From contig NZ_KK211217.1 in assembly GCF_000621165.1 (NCBI RefSeq), forward strand, positions 434,001 through 498,000: DNA of 64,000 nucleotides. Direction: 5' to 3'. The notes under the pieces were generated by a model, which saw nothing but the letters and a program-made list of their open reading frames with translations, searched no databases and was not told where the DNA came from. Positions 40,495 through 53,036 of this stretch are shown here, piece by piece. How positions within the stretch are numbered: the stretch's first letter is position 1; each line of letters starts with the position of its first letter. This DNA is from Enterovibrio calviensis DSM 14347. GTDB taxonomy: Bacteria; Pseudomonadota; Gammaproteobacteria; Enterobacterales; Vibrionaceae. The position numbers and the translations under genes are program-made.

Positions 40495-40508
40495 TCTTTG
40501 TTTCTAAA

Positions 40509-40540
40509 GAAAAAAGGCGGACATGATGTCCGCCTTTTTT
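40509..40540 (+). terminator. Rho-independent terminator after pstB
   Basis: Stem GGCGGACA/TGTCCGCC extended by A-T pairs, loop TGA, followed by a T-run. It begins 15 bp after the pstB stop and ends the operon. Confidence 0.92.
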
Positions 40541-40598
40541 GTGTCATCAGCACAGTCGTTATAACGTTGTTGACTCTATTGTCAGCGCTGGATGATAA

Positions 40599-40630
40599 GA
40601 CGTTGACGTTGACGTTGACGTTGACGTTGA
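40599..40630. repeat. Hexanucleotide tandem repeat (GACGTT)5
   Basis: Five perfect copies of GACGTT plus GA, in the 424-bp gene-poor gap 40495-40918 between pstB and the OprB gene. Perfect short repeats of this sort can vary in copy number by slippage. Confidence 0.9.
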
Positions 40631-40670
40631 TCGTTAAAGCGTAAAATAGTGGTATATCGTAAATGTGGTG

Positions 40671-40799
40671 ATGCTGAAAGAACTGCCCAAAAGCAAAATG
40701 ATTGGCTTGAATGTATTTTTCGCCATTGGAAAAGATAACCAAAAGGTGTTTGCCGACATCATTGATTGGTTTGTCGAAGAAGGCCAATTATTAGGATAA
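40671..40799 (+). CDS. Small ORF of 42 codons, possibly a gene relic
   Basis: The frame reads MLKELPKSKMIGLNVFFAIG followed by an acidic tail ending DWFVEEGQLLG. It looks protein-like (amphipathic, balanced composition), but there is no good ribosome binding site and a stop lies 9 codons upstream. It could be the C-terminal remnant of a lost gene or a true small protein. I cannot name a family. Confidence 0.28.
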   Translation: MLKELPKSKMIGLNVFFAIGKDNQKVFADIIDWFVEEGQLLG

Positions 40800-40803
40800 A
40801 AAG

Positions 40804-40879
40804 GGGCAAGCCGGAAGGAGAGAACACTTTGGGTATATTGGTGCAATCGGAGAAACATCAATATACCCATGGCTTGCCC
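40804..40879. repeat. Long interrupted inverted repeat between pstB and the OprB gene
   Basis: Two nested arm pairs: GGGCAAGCC (40804-40812) with GGCTTGCCC (40871-40879), and TGGGTATATTG (40830-40840) with CAATATACCCA (40859-40869). A 17-nt bulge separates the left arms. It may fold into an RNA hairpin or be the residue of a small mobile repeat. It lies 40 bp past the end of the minus-strand porin gene, so it could act in its termination. Confidence 0.6.
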
Positions 40880-40918
40880 AAAGGTGTGAAGCGTGTTTTG
40901 GAGAGATAAGCGGCTTAA

Positions 40919-42151
40919 TTAAAAACGAATATTCGTTCTTAGCCCAAACAGCAGGGCTTTATCTTCTGTTGATACCATGGATTCCACATACTGAAGATCC
41001 GCAGTAAAGGTCAACCAAGGTGTCGCTTGATAGGCGTAATATGCTTCAACGCCTTGTTCATTCCTCATGCGAGCATCAAGAGGCAAATTGCCCACATCAA
41101 GAATGCCATTAACGGTATCTTTTAAATCGTTGGACAGGGTGAGGTGGTAGTAACCAAGCCCCCAGCTATCTTGTGGGCGATCAAAGAACAGTGCTTGGCC
41201 GCCTAAGCCACCAGCAAATGTTGCGTCCAGAATGTTTGGGTTACCATCGGCGACAGAACCACGTAGATAGAGCCCCCAAGCCTCTCGAGGATTTCCTTCA
41301 TTTTCAGCAATGTTGTGCGTGAACTGCAATCGGGTGTTGTACTTGTACTTGGCGGTTTCAGGTGGCACTTCCCAGTTCATGCCTTCTTCCGTACTGTAGG
41401 TATATGAACCGCCTAAGGTTGTCATCCGCCCTGCCCATAGGGTGGTATACGTGGCTGAAACAGCTAAATTAATGCCATCTTCAAATGCATCATCGAGTCG
41501 TACTTTCTCGGTATAGCGATTTTTTGGATCGTATGCCATGCCAGTAAAACGCCAAGGTCCTTCAGTATGGTTGACGATAGCGCCTAGAAAAGCAGGGGGT
41601 GTGACGCCGCTTGGCGGTGCAGCAAAAGCGACATTCATAAATCCGTGACGTGTTGCGCCGCCGTAAAATGGCGCATGACGCAGTAATTCAAAGGCATCGA
41701 TTTGACCAATGAGGGCATTGGTCGATGGCGAAAAGCGATGCATGTAATACAAGCCAGAGATAAAGGCGCGCTCGTCATCTTCGTAGCCATAAAACCCAGT
41801 GTTAGGCACAGAAAGGCCGTTGATGCCGAGGTTGTTTGCCTCGCCATCTCGGTAAATCAATTGGGTGTGGAAACTGCCACCTTGCCAGAGACCTAGCTTT
41901 TCAGTGTCAGCCCCCACGAGCAAATCTAGTCGGTGTGAAGTGTTGCTGGGGCTGCCGTCTACGCCAGATTGCGCAGACTGATAGGTGTTGGTGTATTCCC
42001 CTTCAAAGGTGAGGCCTGCATCTTGAATCGTAGAGCGTGCTCCTGCCCAATCGCCAGTGAGTGTGTCTTGCGTGTATACGCTTGTTGCTGCAAGTGCGGC
42101 TGGTGATGCCAACATGACAGCAATTGGGATGATTTTTAGTGTTGTTTTCAT
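40919..42151 (-). CDS. OprB-family carbohydrate-selective porin
   Basis: 410-aa outer-membrane protein with a 21-residue signal peptide ending PAALA. Mature start is TSVYTQDTLTGDWAGARSTIQDAGL, the hallmark opening of OprB porins. Strand-rich body, with LGLWQGGSFHTQLIYRDG, FYGYEDDERAFISGLYYMHRFS and DSWGLGYYHLTLS, and a C-terminal Phe (TNIRF). OprB proteins form monomeric sugar-permeable barrels. No sugar transporter is adjacent; the gene 30 bp upstream encodes an unknown protein and is probably co-transcribed. Confidence 0.86.
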   Translation of the reverse strand: MKTTLKIIPIAVMLASPAALAATSVYTQDTLTGDWAGARSTIQDAGLTFEGEYTNTYQSAQSGVDGSPSNTSHRLDLLVGADTEKLGLWQGGSFHTQLIYRDGEANNLGINGLSVPNTGFYGYEDDERAFISGLYYMHRFSPSTNALIGQIDAFELLRHAPFYGGATRHGFMNVAFAAPPSGVTPPAFLGAIVNHTEGPWRFTGMAYDPKNRYTEKVRLDDAFEDGINLAVSATYTTLWAGRMTTLGGSYTYSTEEGMNWEVPPETAKYKYNTRLQFTHNIAENEGNPREAWGLYLRGSVADGNPNILDATFAGGLGGQALFFDRPQDSWGLGYYHLTLSNDLKDTVNGILDVGNLPLDARMRNEQGVEAYYAYQATPWLTFTADLQYVESMVSTEDKALLFGLRTNIRF

Positions 42152-42181
42152 TATTTGTATGCTTCTTGTTGTTTGCCGTTT

Positions 42182-42721
42182 TTATGCGGCTTGTCCCTGA
42201 GTAAAGGCTCGAGCTTGTGCCAGATGACAAAGCTGGAGCTGACGTTGGCAGCGCATGGATGCAGAAATCGCATCGGAGGCTTCTGGCAACGTGAGATAGC
42301 CCCGCTTGAATGCATCAACAACGGTGGCGACATTGCCGGACTCCAGTTCTTGCCAGCTAGTGATGAGCCCTTTGTGTTTTAAGTAGAGATAAAACACGTG
42401 GGTGTCGCTGTGCTCTGAATGTTCGTTGGCCTGCAACAAACGCACTATCTCCGCTTTTGCTTTTTCAATGCTTTGCGCCAGAGCGTGGTAGCGCTCTAGA
42501 TTGACGGACACTGCCATTCGAGAAAAACACGCCTGTAGCGATTGCAATGGGCCGTCTAGGTTTTCATCGTTAGCGATGGTGAAATCCAGCGCATTGATTG
42601 TTGTTAATATCGCGTTTCTCTCTGCGGGTAGAATCGCGATGTTGTCATCCATGACGAATGTTTTTACTTCCTTGCATCGCACCAGCAGCGATTGGCGTGC
42701 GTCGTGTATGCAGCTAAACAT
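42182..42721 (-). CDS. Hypothetical protein upstream of the OprB porin
   Basis: 179-aa protein, predicted soluble and largely helical, with no signal peptide; I recognise no family. Six or so cysteines are spread through it (CIHDAR, VRCKEV, ACFSR, MRCQRQLQLCH), and the C-terminal third contains LESGNVATVVDAFKRGYLTLPEASDAIS. The ATG at 42721 has AAGGTG 7 bp upstream; a GTG three codons earlier is in frame. The 30-bp spacing to the OprB gene suggests an operon. Regulation or chaperoning of the porin would be a guess. Confidence 0.6.
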   Translation of the reverse strand: MFSCIHDARQSLLVRCKEVKTFVMDDNIAILPAERNAILTTINALDFTIANDENLDGPLQSLQACFSRMAVSVNLERYHALAQSIEKAKAEIVRLLQANEHSEHSDTHVFYLYLKHKGLITSWQELESGNVATVVDAFKRGYLTLPEASDAISASMRCQRQLQLCHLAQARAFTQGQAA

Positions 42722-43088
42722 TGTCGTCACCTTTGTGATTCAGGCAGTACAAATACTAGGGATCAGAAGCTAAAAAGAACTAAAATCACCGAAAATCAAA
42801 AACCAACTAACTAGTTGTAAATAATGGTTTTTCATGTGAATTCATCGGTTATCACATAGGTTTCAGTGCTGCTTTGACGCCGGGGCTGAAGGTGATGAAC
42901 GTTTTTCTGCATCGTCATCGATTGCTGTAGGGAGGAGAGTTTGTTTTTGGTGGAAATTGCTGGTGTCGATGTGGCTCGCTGCTGTGAATTTTGAAAGCGA
43001 AAGGCCAAGTCCTCTGCAGTTTTGCTGTCGTTTGATTGTCTGTCTGGGAACGGCTTTAACGCTTTGTCCTTCGCTGTCGCGATAGCGT

Positions 43089-43152
43089 AGCTTCTTAGCT
43101 TCTTAGCTTCTTAGCTTCTTAGCTTCTTAGCTTCTTAGCTTCTTAGCTTCTT
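43089..43152. repeat. Tandem array of 8-bp unit AGCTTCTT, 8 perfect copies
   Basis: Eight uninterrupted identical copies. The array lies in the 672-bp gene-free stretch 42722-43393 and passes directly into a second, different array. Perfect identity implies recent expansion or a slippage-prone locus. Confidence 0.95.
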
Positions 43153-43215
43153 AGCCCAAAGCCCAAAGCCCAAAGCCCAAAGCCCAAAGCCCAAAGCCCA
43201 AAGCACAAAGCCCAA
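43153..43215. repeat. Tandem array of 7-bp unit AGCCCAA, 9 copies
   Basis: Nine copies abutting the 8-bp array with no spacer; the eighth copy has one C-to-A change. Both units share the start AGC. A third small repeat, (GCAAGAA)-like, lies near 43333-43350. There is no open frame across the arrays on either strand that I can support. Confidence 0.95.
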
Positions 43216-43393
43216 AGCATAAGAAACGGTTTACTGGGTTTGTTTTGTGGTTGGCATGATCAAAGTGCCAAGGCAGAGATGACGGCTCTCATGATGGGAA
43301 GTATTGGATAAGCTCGGGAGGCGAGAGGTAAAAAGCAAGAAGCAAGAAGCCTACACCACGAGGCTATAGGCCAGATTAAAAACAGAGAGAAGA

Positions 43394-43957
43394 TTAAAGG
43401 CTGGAATTGATGATTTTAGCCTCAGAGGTTGGATGCACCCTGACAATGCCCATGTAGGGGATTTCCATGATGGCTTCGGTGTTGGATATCGAAATGATAT
43501 TTCGCTGACCTTGATACATATCATGCAGCAGATCGTCGAGATATGGCTGGAACGTCGCCAAATCAAATCCTTCCGAGTGCTCGGTGATGGCAGCGGTGCG
43601 TTTATCCACCTCGAGCTTCAAACGGTTACCGCCGTTCACTTGAATACCCGCATCAAATTGCAACGTCACGAAGCCCATTAATCCCTCCGAATCAAACAGC
43701 TTCATCCTGACGGCAATGGTGGCATCACCGCCTTCTTTCACTGCCGTTTCAATTTCAGATTCAACGACACGAAGTCCCCAATGATGGCTGAGAAAACCAA
43801 ACTGGTTTGGGTAACCCCGATGCTTGAGATACCACACTTTATTTTCAGCCATGACTTCTGGATGATTAACGATGGAATGATGATGGTTAATGCCCCAAGC
43901 CCCCATCGCGGCAAGGAGTAATAGCGCCGTGATTACTCGGTGGAAGACAGATGGCAT
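43394..43957 (-). CDS. Single-pass membrane/periplasmic protein, likely partner of the upstream ToxR-like regulator
   Basis: 187-aa protein with an N-terminal membrane anchor (residues 8-24, VITALLLLAAMGAWGIN) and a periplasmic domain rich in alternating beta pattern (ATIAVRMKLF, MGFVTLQFDAG, NRLKLEVDKRT, NIISISNTEAIMEIPYMG). No cysteines. AGGTG precedes the start codon, which lies inside the end of the regulator gene (25-bp overlap). In ToxR/ToxS, VtrA/VtrC and GrvA/FidL-type pairs the second gene has this size, topology and position and forms a ligand-sensing heterodimer with the regulator. The assignment is by architecture, not by recognised sequence. Confidence 0.6.
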   Translation of the reverse strand: MPSVFHRVITALLLLAAMGAWGINHHHSIVNHPEVMAENKVWYLKHRGYPNQFGFLSHHWGLRVVESEIETAVKEGGDATIAVRMKLFDSEGLMGFVTLQFDAGIQVNGGNRLKLEVDKRTAAITEHSEGFDLATFQPYLDDLLHDMYQGQRNIISISNTEAIMEIPYMGIVRVHPTSEAKIINSSL

Positions 43958-44661
43958 AGCAGCACCTTTTTGTTGTCGTCAGCCCACGTTAGGCTTGGCA
44001 GTCTTTGGGGGGGAGTCAGCGCCGAGACCTCAATCTGGTTGAGGCGATGTGTCGCTCGCGCATCAGAAAGCAGTGATTCACACGCGGTGTAATTCAGCGC
44101 ATCTTGTCCGAGTGATCCTTTGATCACCATTGGCTGCCATTCTGTTGGTATTTCTCGTGTTGGCAGCCAGCTATCAAACATACCGTGCTGAAACATGGAA
44201 GAAAGGCTGAACAACAAACTCACTGCGCACACAACATTGATGGCGTAAAGCATCAGGGAACCACGGCGCTTCAAGCACCACTGAGCGGCCTTGGTTTGTG
44301 TGGAGCGGTGTTTTCGTAGTGTCGATTTAAGCTCGCTTTCATCAAGCAGCGCCACATCTGCAATCAAGGCATAGCCTTTCATGACCTGAGTTTGGATAAA
44401 ACGTGGCGTATCCGCTGAGTCCCCCAGCAGTTTGCGCAGGTTTTTTATCGACGTGGCAACACTGGATTTCGCGCGTTTGCCGTCCCATACCGAATTGAGA
44501 ATGTGGTCGGCAGAAATATCGATGCCCGGATTGGCAACGAACAAGTGCAGCAATTTCCATTCATTGGATTTAAGTTGCTGGGTTTCCTTTTGATGAACAT
44601 GAACAATCTTCCCTGATGCGTTATCAAAAACAATGTCCTGGTTAATCAGGTAATAGGTCAT
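43933..44661 (-). CDS. ToxR-type membrane-bound winged-helix transcriptional regulator
   Basis: 242-aa protein. Residues 1-105 form an OmpR/PhoB-type winged helix (NEWKLLHLFVANPG, SVATSIKNLRKLLGD, IQTQVMKGYALIA). There is a basic linker (110-134), one membrane helix (about 135-156) and a periplasmic domain of about 85 residues holding two cysteines (Cys194, Cys236) that could form a disulfide, as in ToxR. Such proteins bind DNA from the membrane and sense periplasmic signals such as bile. No sensor kinase is involved. Targets are not visible; the small membrane gene just upstream is co-directional. Confidence 0.8.
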   Translation of the reverse strand: MTYYLINQDIVFDNASGKIVHVHQKETQQLKSNEWKLLHLFVANPGIDISADHILNSVWDGKRAKSSVATSIKNLRKLLGDSADTPRFIQTQVMKGYALIADVALLDESELKSTLRKHRSTQTKAAQWCLKRRGSLMLYAINVVCAVSLLFSLSSMFQHGMFDSWLPTREIPTEWQPMVIKGSLGQDALNYTACESLLSDARATHRLNQIEVSALTPPQRLPSLTWADDNKKVLLCHLSSTE

Positions 44662-44708
44662 ATTTGAACGCTATGATTGCCAGTAATATTGAAATGACGC
44701 CGTGGGCG

Positions 44709-44888
44709 CTACTTCGGCGTGAGGATAAAATCGTAGAGGTTATTAACACCTTGCTGATGCAGAACGTCACTCTCATAAAGGTAGTGTTCAACCACTTGGT
44801 TGCTTTGCTGCAGTGAAGCGAAGGCAAACATCAGCATGAGGCTGACCGTTGCGGTTAAGATGATTGTTGCCAACATGTATTTGCTCAT
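44709..44888 (-). CDS. Small membrane protein of 59 aa, first gene of the ToxR-like cassette
   Basis: The frame starts MSKYMLATIILTATVSLMLM, a single hydrophobic helix (about 5-24), then a polar tail ending YDFILTPK. GGGAGGTGA lies 5 bp before the ATG, one of the best ribosome binding sites in the window. It ends 47 bp before the regulator start on the same strand, so co-transcription is likely. The topology suggests a short cytoplasmic start and an outside tail of about 35 residues. No family recognised; a modulator of the membrane regulator is one possibility. Confidence 0.62.
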   Translation of the reverse strand: MSKYMLATIILTATVSLMLMFAFASLQQSNQVVEHYLYESDVLHQQGVNNLYDFILTPK

Positions 44889-44984
44889 AAGTCACCTCCC
44901 GATCTTGAATATCACGGTATCAGTCGGCGATTATTTGCACCAATCAGTTATGTTAGGGAAAACCCATCAAACCGTGGAAAGGGG

Positions 44985-45947
44985 CTATGAATGCTGACGG
45001 AGTGTGTTTTCCAAAGTGGCGATTTTTTCCAACAAACGGGCTTTCTTTATTTCTAAAGGAATTGGCTTTCTTCCTCGTTGGTTTCTAAGGGTTGGTTCTT
45101 CTTGCGCACTTTGCGCATTGGTAAGCTTATCAAGCTCGCGCTTTGCGTGATTTAGTGCTTTTTGCCATTGCTGTACGTTACTCAGCGCAGGTCTTCCCGC
45201 CCGTTTTTGGTTGATGTTTTTCGCGTGCGTTTGCCACACCTTCTGTGGTGATGAGGTTTTGTATTGCGATGCCTTCCACCGTTCGCAAAGCTCAAAATAG
45301 GCGTCAATCATGGCTTGTTCTGCGCGAACAAACTGCACGGGTAACGGAATGGCAGGTCGCCCAGTTCGCGATTGTTGCTCCGGTGGGTAGACCAATGACA
45401 TCCGGTAATGAATCACAAACAACATTGCCTGTCTGATGTTAGTTCTTAGCCCTTGAAGCCAAGCTTTGTTTGGGCTGATTGAAGTATCAAGTTGTGCCAT
45501 CAGCTCGTCCGCCACTTGTTTGAGGCAAAGGGTTTGAGTGGAAATGTCAGCGTTGGCGAGCTGCGCAAAGTCAGCGTCAAAGTCTTGAATAAAAGAGACA
45601 GAGCGCGGGGTGAAATTTTGCGTCGAAAGGTAGAGCTGATAAAACCCAGAGAGCTGCCCAAGTAGCGCGTGAATGTGTTGCCCGTGTTCGGTAAAGGCGT
45701 TTGAGAAATTGGGGTTTCGCTGCACGCCTAGCAGCAGATTTTCAGCGTCTGCCCATAGCCGGAACTCTTCGCTGACCGCGAATAGCGTTTGGCTAAGTTG
45801 TGCTCGCTGGTGGTCGTCAAGAGAAGGGTGGAACGCCGTCATTGATGCCATAACCTGTTGATAGAGGATTCTTTTCTTTTCAAACAGGCGAGCAACCAAG
45901 CGTTCTTGGCGAAGGATGGGGCATTCAGTCGGACGTCCTCTTGGCAT
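44985..45947 (-). CDS. Hypothetical protein with four AT-hook-like motifs
   Basis: 320-aa, basic, mostly helical protein of unknown family. Four short Arg-Gly-Arg-Pro-type motifs are spread along it: RGRP at 3-6, RTGRP at 194-198, KRAGRP at 248-253 and RGRKP at 291-295. Such motifs contact the minor groove of AT-rich DNA. The ends of the chain look like coiled coils (RQERLVARLFEKKRILYQQV and KKARLLEKIATLENTLRQ). It follows the cold-shock-domain gene after 29 bp on the same strand. A nucleoid-associated or DNA-bridging role is an inference from the motifs alone. Confidence 0.58.
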   Translation of the reverse strand: MPRGRPTECPILRQERLVARLFEKKRILYQQVMASMTAFHPSLDDHQRAQLSQTLFAVSEEFRLWADAENLLLGVQRNPNFSNAFTEHGQHIHALLGQLSGFYQLYLSTQNFTPRSVSFIQDFDADFAQLANADISTQTLCLKQVADELMAQLDTSISPNKAWLQGLRTNIRQAMLFVIHYRMSLVYPPEQQSRTGRPAIPLPVQFVRAEQAMIDAYFELCERWKASQYKTSSPQKVWQTHAKNINQKRAGRPALSNVQQWQKALNHAKRELDKLTNAQSAQEEPTLRNQRGRKPIPLEIKKARLLEKIATLENTLRQHS

Positions 45948-45976
45948 TATCTTTGTCTCAGGCTTTGGGTATATGT

Positions 45977-46222
45977 TTAGTCAAGTGGCAGAATATGAGT
46001 GGCTGAATAACCACCGCTGCTTTGCTGCGTGATTTCCATATAAACGCGTTGTTCGTGGCGAAGCGTAATCGGGTCATCACAATGGATTGAAGACAAGTCA
46101 AAAAGGACATCGACTCCCATGCCATCAGGCACCGCGAAACCAAACCCTTTCTCTGCGTTAAACCATTTTATGCTGCCTTTTAGGCATAGCGTTGTGTGTG
46201 ATTTCACAGCCTTTTTCTCCAT
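45977..46222 (-). CDS. Cold-shock-domain protein, divergent
   Basis: 81-aa protein with one OB-fold cold-shock domain. GSIKWFNAEKGFGFAVPDG holds the RNP1 motif KGFGFA, but RNP2 reads VDVLFDLSSI where CspA-like proteins have DVFVHFSAI, so part of the nucleic-acid face is changed. The N-terminal 14 residues are an extension. The ATG at 46222 is chosen over a TTG 24 bp upstream; neither has a strong ribosome site. It is probably co-transcribed with the AT-hook-like gene and may bind single-stranded DNA or RNA. Confidence 0.75.
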   Translation of the reverse strand: MEKKAVKSHTTLCLKGSIKWFNAEKGFGFAVPDGMGVDVLFDLSSIHCDDPITLRHEQRVYMEITQQSSGGYSATHILPLD

Positions 46223-46463
46223 GTGGCACGAAGTCGCTTTATCCAAATCCTACCTCAATCATCGAATTAATAGGTAATAAATTAATTCGATAGTTTTCCT
46301 GAGTGACACCACAAAACCAGATCAAGATCACACCAAAAACTGATCTGGAACAAGAATGTTAACGCCTCTCCCTACTGTGTTTTTTCGAAGTTAAGTACAA
46401 AGCCCCTAAACCGTCCTGCCGCTTCAACGTGGCAGGTTGATTATTTATCAGCGGGCTTAAACC

Positions 46464-47822
46464 ATGAAAAAAAAAATTTATATTCCAATGACTTTACTCG
46501 GCATGTTGATGAGCGCGGCTGTGGTGGCAAAACCTGTTTCGCTGGAAGCCTTGTATCACGACACCTTGAACAATAACCCCCAGCTTGCTTATTCACAGTT
46601 GGAAACCCAGCGTGCTGCGGAACAAAAAACACAAGCGAGCGCACTGTATCAACCTCAAATTGACGCGTCCGTTTCGTATGGCGCACTGCGTAATGATTGG
46701 ACCACCCTAACGGAAACCGATGGGCAGGGGGCTGAGGCTAAATTGTCTGTCGGTCAGAATCTTTTTAGCCAAGAACTGAACGAAGCCAACAAATTGGCAG
46801 AACATCAGGTTGCGTTGTCATCAGTCACGCATCAAGTGGCGATTGAAGGGCTGACGCTGCAAGTTGCCAATCGCTATTTTTCTGCTTTGCGTATGCAAGA
46901 AGCCTTAAAGCAGACCGAAGCGACATTCAATGCCATCGCTGAGCACCTCAAACAAACACAGCACCGTTTCAATAACGGCTTGATCGCCGAGAACGATGTT
47001 AAGGAAACCCAAGCGCAATACGATTTGGCAAAGGCGGCGGTGATCTTTGCGCAAAATGATGTTGAGAAAGCGCTGGATGATCTTTATGCCTTATCGGGCA
47101 AGTCTTACACCGGCGTGCAGCCTTTTGACCTTTCTGCAGTAGAAGCCAATACGCCAACGCCAGCGGGCTTTTCATCATGGGAAGAAAAAGCGCAAACCCA
47201 TAGTCCGCAAATGCGTGTTCAACAGCACGTCATCTCGCTTTCAAAAGCGCAAATCTCTCTGGCGGAAGCGGGACATTTACCCACTCTGGGGCTGTTGGCG
47301 GAATATCGATACGCCTTTGGAGCCAAATCTCGCATCAAACCTATGGTTGGTGACGCAGGCGCATGGGGCGATTTAGACAACAATGCCACCACTTTTGCCG
47401 GTGTTGCGATGACGCTGCCGCTTTATCGTGGCGGTGCAACAAACTCCAAGGTCGAACAGGCCAAAGTGCAATATCAGCAAGCGCTTGAATTACGCGAGCA
47501 AACTTGGCGCGACGTGACCCGCGATGTGCGAAGCACTGAGAAAAACTTGAGTGCGTTATCAAGCGCTAATCGTGCCTATCAACAAGCGGTTATCTCAGCA
47601 GAAGCGGCACTTGCTGCCACTGAACAAGGCTTTGACATCGGAAGTCGCACCATTGTCGATGTCCTCAATGCCACTCACCAACTTTATGCCGCTAGACAGC
47701 AACAGTCAGAAGCAGAAATCAATTACTTGCTGGCAGCGCTCAACCTCAAATTTCTCGGCGGCGAACTCTCCGAACACGACATCACAGCCATTAACAGCCT
47801 TTCCCTGCGAGGCGAAGGATGA
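46464..47822 (+). CDS. TolC-family outer-membrane efflux protein
   Basis: 452-aa outer-membrane factor with a 22-residue signal peptide (ending VVAKP). Two OEP repeats of long helices are visible, about 30-230 and 245-440, for example LTLQVANRYFSALRMQEALKQTEATF and TEKNLSALSSANRAYQQAVISAEAAL. Three such chains form the exit duct. It is the first gene of a three-gene efflux operon, overlapping or abutting the adaptor gene. The 241-bp gap upstream (46223-46463) holds only a short CCTGCC/GGCAGG hairpin near 46413-46436. Confidence 0.87.
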   Translation: MKKKIYIPMTLLGMLMSAAVVAKPVSLEALYHDTLNNNPQLAYSQLETQRAAEQKTQASALYQPQIDASVSYGALRNDWTTLTETDGQGAEAKLSVGQNLFSQELNEANKLAEHQVALSSVTHQVAIEGLTLQVANRYFSALRMQEALKQTEATFNAIAEHLKQTQHRFNNGLIAENDVKETQAQYDLAKAAVIFAQNDVEKALDDLYALSGKSYTGVQPFDLSAVEANTPTPAGFSSWEEKAQTHSPQMRVQQHVISLSKAQISLAEAGHLPTLGLLAEYRYAFGAKSRIKPMVGDAGAWGDLDNNATTFAGVAMTLPLYRGGATNSKVEQAKVQYQQALELREQTWRDVTRDVRSTEKNLSALSSANRAYQQAVISAEAALAATEQGFDIGSRTIVDVLNATHQLYAARQQQSEAEINYLLAALNLKFLGGELSEHDITAINSLSLRGEG

Positions 47823-47884
47823 ATGTGCTCGGTTTGAAACCTCAAAACAGAATTCGTGACGACATAACCAGAAAGAGAACTGAC

Positions 47885-48964
47885 ATGAAAAAAGTATCGT
47901 TATCACTCGTGGCTTCAGCCCTATTGCTTGCAGGATGCAGTGCAGAAAAAGAGAACAATGCTTCTGCTGCGCCGGCGGCAACAGCAGTGACCGTGGCAGA
48001 AGCGGTGGAGGCAAATCACGCGCCTGTAAGCTTCTATGTTGGACGCATCCAAGCGATGGAATCTGCCAAGTTAACGCCGAGAACCACGGGCTATTTGTTG
48101 AGTAAGAATTTTGAAGATGGTGCACTCGTCGAGAAAGGCGATGTGCTGTTCGATATCGATCCTACCTCTTACCAAGCGGCCTTGGATGCCGCCGAAGCGC
48201 TGTTGGTTGAAGCGACATCGGCGCTTGAGTTGTCAACGCTAAACCACAATCGCAGCAAGAACATGCTGTCTACAGGTGGCCTTTCGCAAGCTCAGTTTGA
48301 CCTTAGTCTCGCAGAGTTGACGATGGCGCAATCACGTGTTGAATCCGCCAAGGCGAACGTCACTGTTCAGCAAGATAACCTTGAACAGACCAAGGTGCGC
48401 GCGCCGTATTCAGGTCGTATAGGCAAAAGCAATTTCTCTATTGGCGATATGGTAGGACCAAGCTTTGGCGCCCTGACTGACATCATTCAAGTGTCTCCGA
48501 TTGAGGCAAGCTTCTCGGTGAACGAGAACACGTTGGCGCAATACAACTTTGAGAAAAATAGCCAAACCCCTTTCACCCTCGAAATTAACGGACAAGCAAC
48601 TGGCCACATTGGTTCGCTGTCATTCGTTGATAACAAAGTAAACGCAACGAGCGGCACCATCGCGATTGCGGCTGAATTTGATAACGCTGCGGGAGAGCTG
48701 ATCCCGAATCAGTTCGTGCGTGTCGGCGTCACGAGCGGCGAACTGCAAGGTCAAATGATCCCTCACAAAGCGATTCATCAGGACGTCGATACCCACTATG
48801 TGATGACGATTGTTGATGGCGTTGCGACACGTAAAGACGTGGACGTTGCCTCACGGATTGGGCAAGACGTGTTTGTCACGGAAGGACTGGAATCAGGCGA
48901 GTCTGTGATTGTTGGCGGACTCCAACGCATCCGTGCGGGTGCACCTGTAGTTGCAGCGGAGTAA
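47885..48964 (+). CDS. RND efflux membrane-fusion lipoprotein (adaptor)
   Basis: 359-aa periplasmic adaptor. Lipobox LLAGC with Cys19 marks it as an inner-membrane-anchored lipoprotein. Barrel-sandwich halves are LTPRTTGYLLSKNFEDGALVEKGDVLFDID and NLEQTKVRAPYSGRIG, separated by an alpha-hairpin (about 90-150) that meets the TolC partner; a beta-barrel follows. The ATG at 47885 puts the signal peptide at the N terminus; an ATG at 47819 overlapping the upstream stop would add 22 polar residues before it. It links the pump to the TolC-like duct. Confidence 0.87.
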   Translation: MKKVSLSLVASALLLAGCSAEKENNASAAPAATAVTVAEAVEANHAPVSFYVGRIQAMESAKLTPRTTGYLLSKNFEDGALVEKGDVLFDIDPTSYQAALDAAEALLVEATSALELSTLNHNRSKNMLSTGGLSQAQFDLSLAELTMAQSRVESAKANVTVQQDNLEQTKVRAPYSGRIGKSNFSIGDMVGPSFGALTDIIQVSPIEASFSVNENTLAQYNFEKNSQTPFTLEINGQATGHIGSLSFVDNKVNATSGTIAIAAEFDNAAGELIPNQFVRVGVTSGELQGQMIPHKAIHQDVDTHYVMTIVDGVATRKDVDVASRIGQDVFVTEGLESGESVIVGGLQRIRAGAPVVAAE

Positions 48965-48970
48965 CGAATT

Positions 48971-51900
48971 ATGCTCAGTCAATTTTTTATCAGCCGACCT
49001 AAGTTTGCCTTTGTCATTTCTATCTTCCTGACGTTGATTGGCTTGATTGCGATTAAAACCATGCCGATCTCTGAATACCCTAGCATCACACCGCCGCAAG
49101 TACGGGTGGTGGCGTTTATGCCGGGCGCAAGTGCAGAGACCGTCAAAGAAGTAATTGGCAACCCGATTGAAACGGAAGTAAACGGTGTCGAAGGCATGGT
49201 GTACATGCAGTCACGCTCATCAAATGATGGCCGCTATTTCTTGAATATTACGTTTGAAAACGGTATCGACGCGGACATGGCAATGGTGAATGTCTCTAAC
49301 CGTGTCGCGACTGCAGAAAACCTGTTGCCGTTTGAAGTACGCGCTCGCGGGGTGAGGATCCGTAAAGCGTCGCCGGACGATCTGATGGCGATAGCTTTCT
49401 ATTCTCCGCAAGGCACCATGGATGAGTTGGCACTCAATAGCTGGGTGGAAGCCAACTTTATGGAGCGATTGGCACGTGTACCTGGGCTTGCGACCTCCGA
49501 TTTGGTCGGTGCCACCTTCGGCATGCGCGTCTGGACAGATATCGATCGTATGGCGAGCTTGGGCGTGAGCACGCTAGATGTGAAAAATGCGATTCGCGAG
49601 CAGAACGCTGTTGTGCCAGCGGGCCGAATCGGGCAGGGGCCGAGTCGCGAAAATACCGCGATGCAGTATAACTTGATCACGCAAGGGCGATTAAGCAGTG
49701 CGGAAGAGTTTCAACAAATCATCGTTAAAACCAACGCTGACGGAAGCCAGATTTACCTTGGTGATGTCGCGAAAGTCGAGATTGAACGCCAGTTCTTTGA
49801 TGCCTACGCGACCTACAATGGACAACCTGCGGCGCTGGTAACAACCTCACTGGCACCGGGTGCCAATGCGCTTGACGCTGGCGCAGCCACAATGGAAATC
49901 CTCAAAGAGATAGAAACGCTGCTGCCTGAAGGCGTGGTATACAGCGTGCCTTATGACACCACGGTGTCGGTAGAAGTCTCCATCAAAGAAATCGTGAAAA
50001 CCCTCTTTGTCGCGGTGTTTTTGGTTGTTCTCGTGACATACCTGTTCTTGGGTAACCTTCGTTCTACATTAGCGCCAGTGGTCGCCATTCCCGTGTCCTT
50101 GATTGGTACGTTCGCTTTCATGCAAATGGGCGGCTTTACCATCAACACAGTCACGCTGTTTGGTCTGATCCTCGCGATAGGCATCGTGGTCGATAATGCC
50201 ATTCTCGTGGTGGAAAACGTTGAGCGTATCCTGAATGAAAATGAAGAGATCTCCGCAACCGACGCCACCATTAAAGCCATGTCAGAAGTCACGGGTCCTA
50301 TTGTTGCTTCCACCTTGGTCATGCTGGCGGTATTCATCCCTGTCGCCATGTTACCGGGCATTACTGGCCTCATGTTCGCGCAGTTCTCGATCACGATTTG
50401 TATCGCCTTAGTACTCTCTGCAATCAACGCACTGACCTTGTCTCCAGCGCTTTGCGCTTTGGTGATGAAACGTAACACTCAACCAGCCGCGTGGTTTGTG
50501 GCGTTCAATCGACTGTTCGACAAAGTCACGGCGGGCTACAGCAAGGTCGTGACCCTGTTCGTGCGCAAAACGGCGGTATTGCTGGTGGCGTTTGCCATCG
50601 CAATTGTGGCCATGGTTCAGATGGGTAACAAGGTTCCTACTGCCTTTGTGCCTTCAGAAGATAAGGGCGTGTTAGCTGTCGCGATGTTCTTGCCAGACAA
50701 CGCATCGAAAGCCCGTACGCACGAAATTGTTTCTCAGGCAGAGGCGATTCTGGCGAAGGATCCCGCGATTGAAGACTTTGCTGCGGCTGTCGGTTTCAAT
50801 GCCTTATCGGGTGGTTTGTCATCCAATGCAGCGGCATTGTTCGTGAACCTCAAAGACTGGGATGCACGCTTGGCAATGGACGGCGATCACTCTCAACAAG
50901 CGGTTGCTCAACGATTGAACATGCAACTTTATGGCATCGACAAAGCCATGAGTATTGCCATGGGCCTGCCGCCCATCCCAGGAATTGGTATTGGTGATGC
51001 GTTGGAAGTCATGGTGCAGGACAACGAAGGCCGCAGCGCCCAAGAGTTAGCGAGCGTCACGTATTCGTTGATGGCGGCCGCGAACAACGCGCCAGAAATC
51101 ATCAATGCGATGACCACGTACCGCGCCAATGTTCCGCACTACAACGTCGAAATTGACCGCGAAAAAGCACGTCACTTGGGCGTGCCCGTGGGCGTGATTA
51201 ATGATGCGCTGGCAACCCATTTAGCCTCGGCATACGTCAACGATTTCGCGATGGATGGACGTAGCTATCGCGTGTTTGTTCAAGCCAAAGGCGAGCAGCG
51301 TGACGATCTACAAGATGTGCTTCGCATTCATGTGCCGTCTGCAACAGGAGAGCAGGTTCCACTATCGGCGGTTGCCACTATCGAGCCAACCATGGAACCC
51401 GATATGGTCACCAGCTACAACATGCTCACGTCGGCGCGCCTGCAAATGAACCCAGCACCGGGCTATTCATCGGGTGAAGCGATTGCTGCATTGGAGCGAG
51501 TGGCGGCAGAGGTACTTACCGATGGCTACACCATTGACTGGACCAACATGGCCTATCAAGAAAAGTTGTCAGGCAATGCTGCGCAAATCGCGATGGCACT
51601 GGCGCTGGTCTTCATCTATCTGTTCTTGGTTGCTCAGTATGAATCATGGGCGCTGCCTGCTGCCATCATCATGGTTGCCCCGTTGGCTGCCGTCGGGACA
51701 TTTGCGGCATTGCTGCTTGGCGGACAAGCGCTCTCGATTTACGGCCAGATTGGCATGATCTTACTGATATCCCTTGCAGCGAAAAACGCCATCCTGATGG
51801 TTGAGTTCTCTCGGATCAAACGCGAACAAGAAGGGCTACCCATCGAAGACGCTGCGATTCAAGGCGGCAAGATGCGCTTCCGCGCCGTCAATATGACGTC

Positions 51901-52090
51901 TTGGTCATTCATTCTTGGCATATTGCCTCTGGTCTTTGCAAGTGGTGCAGGTGCCGTTGCACAGAACACCACGGGCCTTGCACTGCTCGGTGGCATGTTA
52001 GTTGTGCTCTGCATCGGCGCCATGATGACCCCAGGTTTCTATGCGTTATTCCAGCGACTGCGTGAGAAGGTCAAAGCCACTGCGAACTAG
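48971..52090 (+). CDS. RND (HAE1) multidrug efflux transporter
   Basis: 1039-aa proton-driven inner-membrane pump, AcrB/MexF class, with 12 membrane helices and two large periplasmic loops. The start is typical ([20 protein letters not shown], then [12 protein letters not shown]). In helix 4 the motif is [16 protein letters not shown]: Asp408 is kept but the next residue, Asp in AcrB, is Asn409. The helix-10 Lys is kept in [15 protein letters not shown]. The gene starts 7 bp after the adaptor gene. Substrate range cannot be read from the sequence. Confidence 0.9.
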
Positions 52091-52130: not shown

Positions 52131-52268
52131 TAATGAACGGAAAACCCCCTCAAATGTGATTTTTTGAAACGCTATTGTCCGTCGATAATGGCGTTAATGA
52201 TTATTGAATGACTTCGCCACCGGGAAGGGACGCTAGGCAGAGCGATGAACTTTAAAAAGGAAAACACC

Positions 52269-53036
52269 ATGAAAAGAACACTTATTGCCAGCACTCTGAT
52301 CGCCGCAACGTCTTTACCAACTTTCGCGGAAGAGAGCAAAGTGATTGACCCTTCAGACCTTACTCAAGTCTACACTCAGGCCGCCGTGTTTGTGACGTCA
52401 GATGCGGATGTGCGCGTGTCTGGTATGTTGACGGGTGCGTGGAATGAAAACACGCAATTTGCCGGTTTCCTTGAAGGTAACTTTGGCGACTCAGATGCCA
52501 AGCAGGGTAAAGATTCGATGGGGGCGGACTACCTAGGAAGCCGCGGTCAGTACTTTCAAGTGCATGCAATTGATAACGATTTGATGCCTCGTGTCGGCTT
52601 CATGACAGATATCATTCATCAAAAGAATGCTGGGCTAGATGACAACTTGCTGTTTTCAGCAGGCGCGATTGGGTTGATTAACCCTAAGTACACGGGCGGC
52701 GCGATGGTGTTCCCTAATGTGAACTATACGGTTGGCGAAGTGTTTGGAGAGTCTGCTGACGGTTACATGCTCAATCTGTTTACGACTGTGCCAGTGGGCG
52801 ATTCCGGTGCTTTTTTTCAGGCGTGGCCGGAATACGTGAAAGTGACGGGCGATGTGGTCGAAATGGAATCGACGGCTTTTAACATGATGTTCAATGCGCC
52901 GATTAAAAGCGATCGCACACAGTGGCTAATGACTAAACTCGCCTACGCTTCGGCAGATGTGGTGCTGCCAAACGGCTGGGAAGTAGAAAATGAATATGAA
53001 CTGAAAGCAGAAATCGGTGTGAAGTGGTTTTTCTAA
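52269..53036 (+). CDS. Putative outer-membrane beta-barrel protein
   Basis: 255-aa protein with a clear signal peptide (MKRTLIASTLIAATSLPTFA). The mature chain has alternating hydrophobic strands (DVRVSGMLTGAWNENTQFAGFLEGNFG, YMLNLFTTVPVGDSGAFFQAWPEYVKV) and a terminal Phe (AEIGVKWFF) as for Bam-inserted barrels. I recognise no named family. The ATG at 52269 follows a purine-rich AAAAAGGAAAA; an ATG at 52245 is in frame. It is probably separately transcribed from the efflux operon because a hairpin and 178 bp lie between. Confidence 0.65.
   Translation: MKRTLIASTLIAATSLPTFAEESKVIDPSDLTQVYTQAAVFVTSDADVRVSGMLTGAWNENTQFAGFLEGNFGDSDAKQGKDSMGADYLGSRGQYFQVHAIDNDLMPRVGFMTDIIHQKNAGLDDNLLFSAGAIGLINPKYTGGAMVFPNVNYTVGEVFGESADGYMLNLFTTVPVGDSGAFFQAWPEYVKVTGDVVEMESTAFNMMFNAPIKSDRTQWLMTKLAYASADVVLPNGWEVENEYELKAEIGVKWFF

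What the first reader, a model, noticed from the sequence alone, without database searches (positions are those of the whole stretch)
43394..44888. Three-gene co-component-like signalling cassette with a small first gene
The sequence shows, in one direction, a 59-aa one-helix protein with an excellent ribosome site, a winged-helix regulator with a membrane helix and a two-cysteine periplasmic domain, and a beta-rich single-pass periplasmic protein whose start overlaps the regulator gene by 25 bp. Established pairs (ToxR/ToxS, VtrA/VtrC, GrvA/FidL) have the last two features and sense periplasmic ligands such as bile salts by forming a heterodimer. The small upstream protein has no counterpart that I know in those pairs, and the partner is not recognisable by sequence. 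This could be a new member of the class with a third component.
Basis: partly seen in the sequence, partly recalled or inferred. Interest (0 to 1): 0.72.

Follow-up and report, generated by a model that had tools for sequence, protein, structure and literature searches.

The report
ToxR-like sensor beside an efflux pump
A Vibrio-family bacterium carries a second relative of the cholera ToxR/ToxS sensor pair, built into a conserved block of genes for an efflux pump and a porin; the tiny extra gene that drew attention is probably real but is found in only some relatives.

Summary
In detail: 59-aa, 242-aa and 187-aa genes on the minus strand, the last two overlapping by 25 bp. Those two are a co-component pair. 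The partner has no recognisable sequence relative, but its moderate-confidence model ranks ToxS first among solved structures, with VtrC close behind. In 7 of 7 loci the partner's ATG starts one nucleotide before the regulator's last cysteine codon, a published tendency of the class. The genome also has a separate ToxR/ToxS, so this is a second system.

The small gene is probably real but is not a general third component: 1 of 6 related loci has a counterpart in that place, and four have no room. Conserved in all 7 loci is a larger block: cold-shock-domain protein, GRP (AT-hook-like) protein, regulator, partner, 182-aa protein and OprB porin, divergent from a tripartite RND pump. A tox-box-like repeat (TGAAW-N5-TGAAA) lies upstream of the 182-aa gene, clear in most loci, weak in one, and not seen in the two regulator-less loci examined.

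Best reading: a periplasmic amphiphile sensor controlling the porin unit, with pump efflux as feedback. New variant of a known kind.

The parts
44709..44888 (-). 59-aa small protein, one hydrophobic helix or signal peptide (AFA|S); optional component
   Evidence: (GGAGGT site); same-position 56-aa ORF in L025 9436-9606
43933..44661 (-). REG: ToxR-like membrane-bound winged-helix regulator, periplasmic C194 and C236
43394..43957 (-). PART: ToxS/VtrC-like lipocalin-fold partner (by model), start codon overlapping the REG C236 codon
44985..45947 (-). GRP: 320-aa protein with four GR/GRP (AT-hook-like) motifs; the conserved gene upstream of REG in 7 of 7 loci (small gene in between in the window and L025)
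45977..46246 (-). CSD89: small cold-shock-domain protein upstream of GRP
   Evidence: Pfam CSD E 6e-12; found in 7 of 7 loci
42182..42730 (-). D182: 182-aa protein without a Pfam family, downstream of PART
   Evidence: in L011 and L026 linked through intermediate relatives, not by the window protein itself
40919..42151 (-). OprB-family porin
   Evidence: Pfam OprB E 1.7e-28; 7 of 7 loci, cut off by the locus end in L011 and L012
42827..42846 (-). tox-box-like direct repeat TGAAT-TCACA-TGAAA upstream of D182 (proposed REG operator)
46265..46285 (+). AT-rich palindrome AATTAATAGGTAATAAATTAA in the divergent OEP/CSD region
46464..47822 (+). TolC-like outer-membrane channel (OEP) of the divergent pump
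47819..48964 (+). RND periplasmic adaptor (MFP)
48971..52090 (+). RND efflux permease

Best explanation
REG and PART form a co-component sensor of the ToxR/ToxS kind. PART, anchored by its N-terminal helix, is a lipocalin-like periplasmic domain that binds an amphiphilic ligand and docks on the REG periplasmic domain (ligand and docking inferred by analogy with VtrA/VtrC and ToxR/ToxS). The signal reaches the REG winged helix in the cytoplasm, which binds the tox-box-like repeat TGAAW-N5-TGAAA about 100 bp upstream of D182 and sets expression of the D182-OprB unit. The divergent RND pump presumably exports the same class of compound, so efflux would lower the signal (feedback). CSD89 and GRP look like nucleic-acid-binding proteins of an older pump core; GRP is the likeliest binder of the AT-rich palindrome between the two operons. 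The 59-aa protein is an optional membrane or periplasmic accessory in some lineages. Shown by computation: gene content and order, partner fold (moderate-confidence model), Cys/ATG overlap, conserved repeat. Inferred: ligand, heterodimer, operator, feedback, and all roles of CSD89, GRP, D182 and the small protein.
For: Fold: the PART model (2 sequences; pLDDT 63.8, pTM 0.56; one helix then 8 strands) matches V. parahaemolyticus ToxS 8u2f (Foldseek E 1.9e-6; Z 14.2), V. cholerae ToxS 8alo_B (E 2.0e-6; Z 13.4) and VtrC 5kew/5kev/8dml (Z 11.9-11.6); the next row is Z 9.0. Signature: PART ATG one nucleotide upstream of the last REG Cys codon in 7 of 7 loci, a tendency described for the class in PMC9214523 section 9. 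Gene order: 7 of 7 loci. Operator: EM on 6 D182 upstream regions scored 80.7 (width 16) and 103.8 (width 22) against maxima of 71.0 and 90.0 in 20 shuffles each; leave-one-out scores window 25.6, L013 22.0, L011 21.1, L024 14.8 (each first in its whole locus), held-out L016 20.7; the two REG-less D182 regions score 6.3 and 10.5, the random 95% level being 10.5. ToxR site TNAAA-N5-TNAAA: PMC8517210 passage. ToxR agonists described are RND substrates: PMC10225521 passage; ToxR responds to lost RND efflux: PMC5773229 abstract.
Against: Profile-profile comparison does not link PART to ToxS (hhalign probability 1.1-1.3%) nor the REG periplasmic part to ToxR (0.5%); a mismatched control (REG part against ToxS) gave 1.6%. 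The PART model rests on two sequences, and in Foldseek rice fibrillin 5 chains rank 4-6, ahead of VtrC at 7-10. The REG model failed (pLDDT 42) and no complex was modelled. Exact TNAAA-N5-TNAAA on the gene strand occurs in only 2 of 6 D182 upstream regions and a TGAAW pair in 4 of 6. L026 scores 10.2, no better than a REG-less region; in L025 the site scores 8.6 (rank 13 in the locus), or 14.1 (rank 2) in an overlapping register 10 bp away. No consistent REG-type box at the pump promoter; 5 loci have pump, CSD and GRP without REG/PART, so the pump does not need REG. In G139 and G040 four genes separate PART from D182.
Confidence: 0.6

Rival explanations
1. REG/PART is a co-component pair that mainly controls the divergent RND pump (and itself), the porin link being secondary.
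For: Pump, CSD and GRP adjoin REG/PART in 7 of 7 loci; loss of RND efflux activates ToxR in V. cholerae (PMC5773229 abstract).
Against: The two motifs of the divergent promoter occur as well in the 5 loci without REG/PART; REG-type repeats there exceed the random 95% level (10.5) only in L013 and in REG-less L044, of 12 loci.
Confidence: 0.2
2. A three-component sensor in which the 59-aa protein is an essential subunit or periplasmic modulator of REG/PART.
For: Good ribosome site, chance 1 of 3000; same-position 56-aa ORF in L025 with AGGAGG (0 of 3000) and a weakly similar tail (shuffle p 0.026; full length p 0.12); a third, unlike 64-aa hydrophobic ORF after PART in L024.
Against: No room in 4 of 7 loci and no ORF on that strand in the 162-bp gap of L026; no match outside the own genome in 324 genomes (which also missed the L025 ORF).
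Confidence: 0.12
3. The small ORF is a translational leader or a decayed remnant, not a working protein; the rest is as in the best explanation.
For: It ends 47 bp before REG; its likeness to the L025 ORF is weak.
Against: Codon score at the level of its neighbours (0.154; REG 0.076, PART 0.137); hydrophobic N-terminus in both loci.
Confidence: 0.08

Closest known systems
ToxR/ToxS of Vibrio
   Same: Regulator architecture, DNA-binding domain (E 3.4e-9), two conserved periplasmic Cys, partner fold (Z 14.2 and 13.4), tox-box-like repeat before a porin unit (ToxR control of porins: recalled). This genome's own toxR/toxS shows the same Cys/ATG overlap, although PMC9214523 lists ToxR/ToxS among the pairs without gene overlap.
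   Different: A separate toxR/toxS-like pair lies elsewhere in this genome, beside an htpG-like gene (gene names by my recognition). Here: in an RND-pump/OprB block, in 7 of 329 family genomes, with no profile-level similarity of the periplasmic parts.
VtrA/VtrC of V. parahaemolyticus
   Same: Overlapping genes; partner fold (Z 11.9-11.6)
   Different: VtrA lacks the disulfide found in the other regulators (PMC9214523); VtrA/VtrC controls a type III secretion system, whereas the neighbours here are pump and porin genes
GrvA/FidL, MarT/FidL, PsaE/PsaF, TcpP/TcpH
   Same: Two-gene order; the one-nucleotide Cys/ATG overlap is listed for TcpP/TcpH and PsaE/PsaF; MarT shares the TNAAA-N5-TNAAA consensus (PMC11358694 passages)
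   Different: FidL-type partners carry a disulfide (PMC9214523); the window PART sequence has no Cys

Membership tests
Co-component signal transduction systems (Kinch et al. 2022) | N-terminal CadC/ToxR-type winged helix, one TM helix, C-terminal periplasmic domain | tested here: met
   Trans_reg_C E 7.6e-14 at residues 28-99; hydrophobic helix about 137-158 by reading and in the poor model, about 80 residues follow; topology not tested by a predictor
Co-component signal transduction systems (Kinch et al. 2022) | Adjacent downstream gene with N-terminal TM helix and lipocalin-like periplasmic fold | tested here: met
   (moderate-confidence model from two sequences)
Co-component signal transduction systems (Kinch et al. 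2022) | Conserved periplasmic cysteines, one near the C terminus; partner ATG overlapping that Cys codon, shifted one nucleotide upstream | tested here: met
   7 of 7 loci; described as a tendency; the disulfide bond itself is not testable here
Co-component signal transduction systems (Kinch et al. 2022) | Periplasmic heterodimer of the two proteins | not testable with these tools
   no complex prediction on offer; REG model pLDDT 42
ToxR/ToxS (orthologous family) | Sequence similarity of the periplasmic domains to ToxR and ToxS | tested here: not met
   hhalign probability 0.5% and 1.1-1.3%; the ToxR/ToxS-like pair lies elsewhere in the genome
ToxR/ToxS (orthologous family) | TNAAA-N5-TNAAA operators at target promoters | tested here: inconclusive
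   Related TGAAW-N5-TGAAA repeat upstream of D182; exact form in 2 of 6; binding not tested

The most novel reading that the evidence does not exclude
A co-component sensor that has acquired fast-evolving small secreted or membrane peptides as exchangeable third subunits: different lineages carry unlike 56-64-aa proteins with a hydrophobic stretch in the same gene block (window, L025, L024), each tuning the ligand response of REG/PART inside a self-contained detoxification module (sensor, pump, porin and two nucleic-acid-binding regulators).
Probability: 0.12. Interest if true: 0.78.

Novelty: new variant of a known kind. Interest (0 to 1): 0.52.

Why it matters
The co-component systems collected in PMC9214523 are described there as virulence regulators of enteric bacteria. 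Here one sits in 7 of 329 Vibrionaceae genomes searched, one of them V. splendidus, as a fixed part of an RND pump and porin block, with a candidate operator. It offers a compact, testable case of the proposal that ToxR-type sensors read pump substrates, and suggests that such sensors can be found by gene order and the Cys/ATG overlap where sequence searches fail.

Tried and rejected
Rejected: the 59-aa gene as a universal third component (second rival). Rejected: PART as a sequence-level ToxS (hhalign 1.1-1.3%). The REG structure model was too poor to use (pLDDT 42). No consistent REG-type box at the pump promoter. The AT palindrome is not tied to REG, since the 5 REG-less loci have it; it has one site in the own genome at up to 2 mismatches, but the backwards control pattern also gave 1 match. 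The second divergent-promoter motif (0-4 mismatches of 14 in 12 loci) had no shuffle control, and 4 mismatches of 14 is weak. Class-wide GRP search: 1 of 274 genomes, the own one. Order-wide partner search: 3 of 394, one of them (E 0.003, nine stops in the match) taken as chance. Partner search of genome contigs with the single protein: none. Pfam scans of the 7 PART and 7 GRP sequences gave only weak, unconvincing names. Sigma-70 scan of 40500-46500: 1 promoter-like site against 7.5 expected, terminators at chance level, so operon limits are not shown. Literature: five searches aimed at a third component, a pump-linked co-component or this locus; others returned nothing, and of the papers shown by 62 and 84 (4 of 4 and 12 of 18, judged by title and start of abstract, plus passages of PMC10269533) none described this locus. 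Only CC0, CC BY and CC BY-SA papers are held.

Errors of mine, corrected: the repeat pattern had one N too many; the L025 site was out of register. L012, L016 and L005 come from one genome (G040 = V. splendidus MOR1). L016, close to L011, was left out of the EM and the weight matrix and used as a held-out check.

Full report
Observation. The 242-aa protein (REG) has a Trans_reg_C domain (E 7.6e-14) and its nearest solved sequence is the V. cholerae ToxR DNA-binding domain (E 3.4e-9). The 187-aa protein (PART) matches nothing in Pfam, NCBIfam or PDB sequences; a 7-sequence profile of it gave one PDB match, Cullin-5 at E 0.22, taken as chance.

Relatives. A search with PART found 4 of 150 family genomes; a profile found 7 of 329. 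One is Vibrio splendidus MOR1 by contig name, length and position, so the family is Vibrionaceae (recalled). The own genome also holds a separate ToxR-like/ToxS-like pair, so REG/PART is a second system.

Membership. A two-sequence AlphaFold2 model of PART (pLDDT 63.8, pTM 0.56) shows a long first helix and eight strands, with a helix between strands 5 and 6. In Foldseek, ToxS chains rank 1-3 (best E 1.9e-6), rice fibrillin 5 chains 4-6 and VtrC chains 7-10. Realigned by VIA-align 2 (a second look at Foldseek's first 1000), ToxS of V. parahaemolyticus (Z 14.2) and V. cholerae (13.4) and VtrC (11.9-11.6) lead, the next row being 9.0. In 7 of 7 loci the PART ATG starts one nucleotide before the TGC/TGT codon of the last REG cysteine, which PMC9214523 reports as a tendency of co-component genes (section 9 read). 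Two REG cysteine columns are invariant in 7 of 7. Sequence profiles do not connect the periplasmic parts with ToxR or ToxS, as that paper reports for other families (parts 1-3 of 7 read; passages).

The locus. In 7 of 7 genomes tblastn finds the same arrangement: a TolC-like channel, adaptor and RND permease on one strand; divergently a cold-shock-domain gene, the GRP gene, REG, PART, D182 and an OprB porin. D182 of L011 and L026 is linked to the window protein only through intermediate relatives, and some end genes are cut by the ends of the fetched stretches. In two genomes (G139, G040) two LysR genes, a choloylglycine-hydrolase-family gene (PF02275, E 3e-35 for the G139 copy) and an amidohydrolase gene lie between PART and D182. 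A GRP profile hits 12 of 324 genomes: 6 of the 7 above (G551 is not among its hits and may not have been sampled; its GRP was found), 5 genomes of the V. splendidus genus with pump, CSD and GRP but no REG/PART in the fetched 16.5-17 kb and no PART hit, and one (G474) with a fragment only. REG/PART is thus an addition to, or a loss from, a pump-CSD-GRP core.

The small gene. The gap between GRP and REG is 323 bp in the window, 365 bp in L025 and 162 bp in L026, and 22 bp or less, or an overlap, in the other four loci. L025 has a 56-aa ORF with AGGAGG in that gap; L026 has none on that strand; L024 has an unlike 64-aa ORF after PART. An ORF of 50 aa or more with ribosome site and hydrophobic stretch arose in 1 of 3000 and 0 of 3000 shuffles of the window and L025 gaps. 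The window and L025 proteins are only weakly alike (BLASTP E 0.033; tail p 0.026, full length p 0.12). I read it as a real, optional gene.

Operator. On the 250 bp upstream of D182 in six loci (L016, close to L011, left out), EM placed its best motif on GATGAAW-N4-ATGAAAAAC-like sites, scoring above every one of 20 shuffles at two widths. This is a TGAAW-N5-TGAAA direct repeat, close to the ToxR site TNAAA-N5-TNAAA (PMC8517210 passages; the same consensus is given for MarT in PMC11358694 passages). On the gene strand the exact ToxR form occurs in 2 of 6 and a TGAAW pair in 4 of 6; the two REG-less D182 regions examined have neither. Leave-one-out scores are window 25.6, L013 22.0, L011 21.1 and L024 14.8, each the best in its whole fetched sequence; L026 10.2 (second); L025 8.6 (13th), or 14.1 (second) in an overlapping register. 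The held-out L016 scores 20.7; the two REG-less regions 6.3 and 10.5; random 250-base pieces have a 95% level of 10.5. The support is thus good in the window, L011, L016, L013 and L024, fair in L025 and absent in L026. The window site 42827-42846 is the only one in the 5.5-Mb genome at one mismatch or less, with no control match, though the pattern was built partly from it. The divergent pump promoter has an AT palindrome with 0-2 mismatches in 11 of 12 loci and 5 in L013, shared with the 5 REG-less loci.

Mechanism. The anatomy supports a ToxR/ToxS-like sensor reading a periplasmic amphiphile and setting the porin unit, beside a pump likely to export the same compounds. In V. [quoted passage not shown] Ligand, docking, DNA binding and feedback are inferred. 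GRP (its GR or GRP motifs are invariant in the 7 sequences) as binder of the AT palindrome is inference from motif type and co-occurrence.

Verdict. A member of a known class in a new setting with extra conserved partners: new variant of a known kind.

Noticed in passing
window 43088-43218: Two adjoining tandem arrays, TAGCTTCT x 8.5 (100% matches) and AGCCCAA x 9.4 (96%), between PART and D182; a possible slippage site upstream of the porin unit.
   Followed up: partly
L011 5103-6170 and L016 11697-12761: Choloylglycine-hydrolase-family gene (PF02275 E 3e-35 for the L011 copy; L016 copy 96% identical) with two LysR genes and an amidohydrolase between PART and D182; hints at bile-salt-like or N-acyl ligands.
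   Followed up: partly
L048 3439-8603: LysR, choloylglycine-hydrolase-like and LysR genes followed by a homologue of window 52245-53036 and a 201-aa ORF region matching both a D182 relative and a GRP stretch.
   Followed up: no
window 52245-53036: 263-aa protein without Pfam match, with homologues near the pump or D182 in L016 (75%), L050 and L051 (62-63%).
   Followed up: no
L051 2756-3077: OprB seen only as short pieces next to D182 in a genome without REG/PART at its pump locus; looks decayed.
   Followed up: no
window 46340-46353: Second motif CTGATCTGGAACAA in the divergent promoter, 0-4 mismatches in 12 of 12 loci (window position computed from its offset); no shuffle control was run.
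   Followed up: partly
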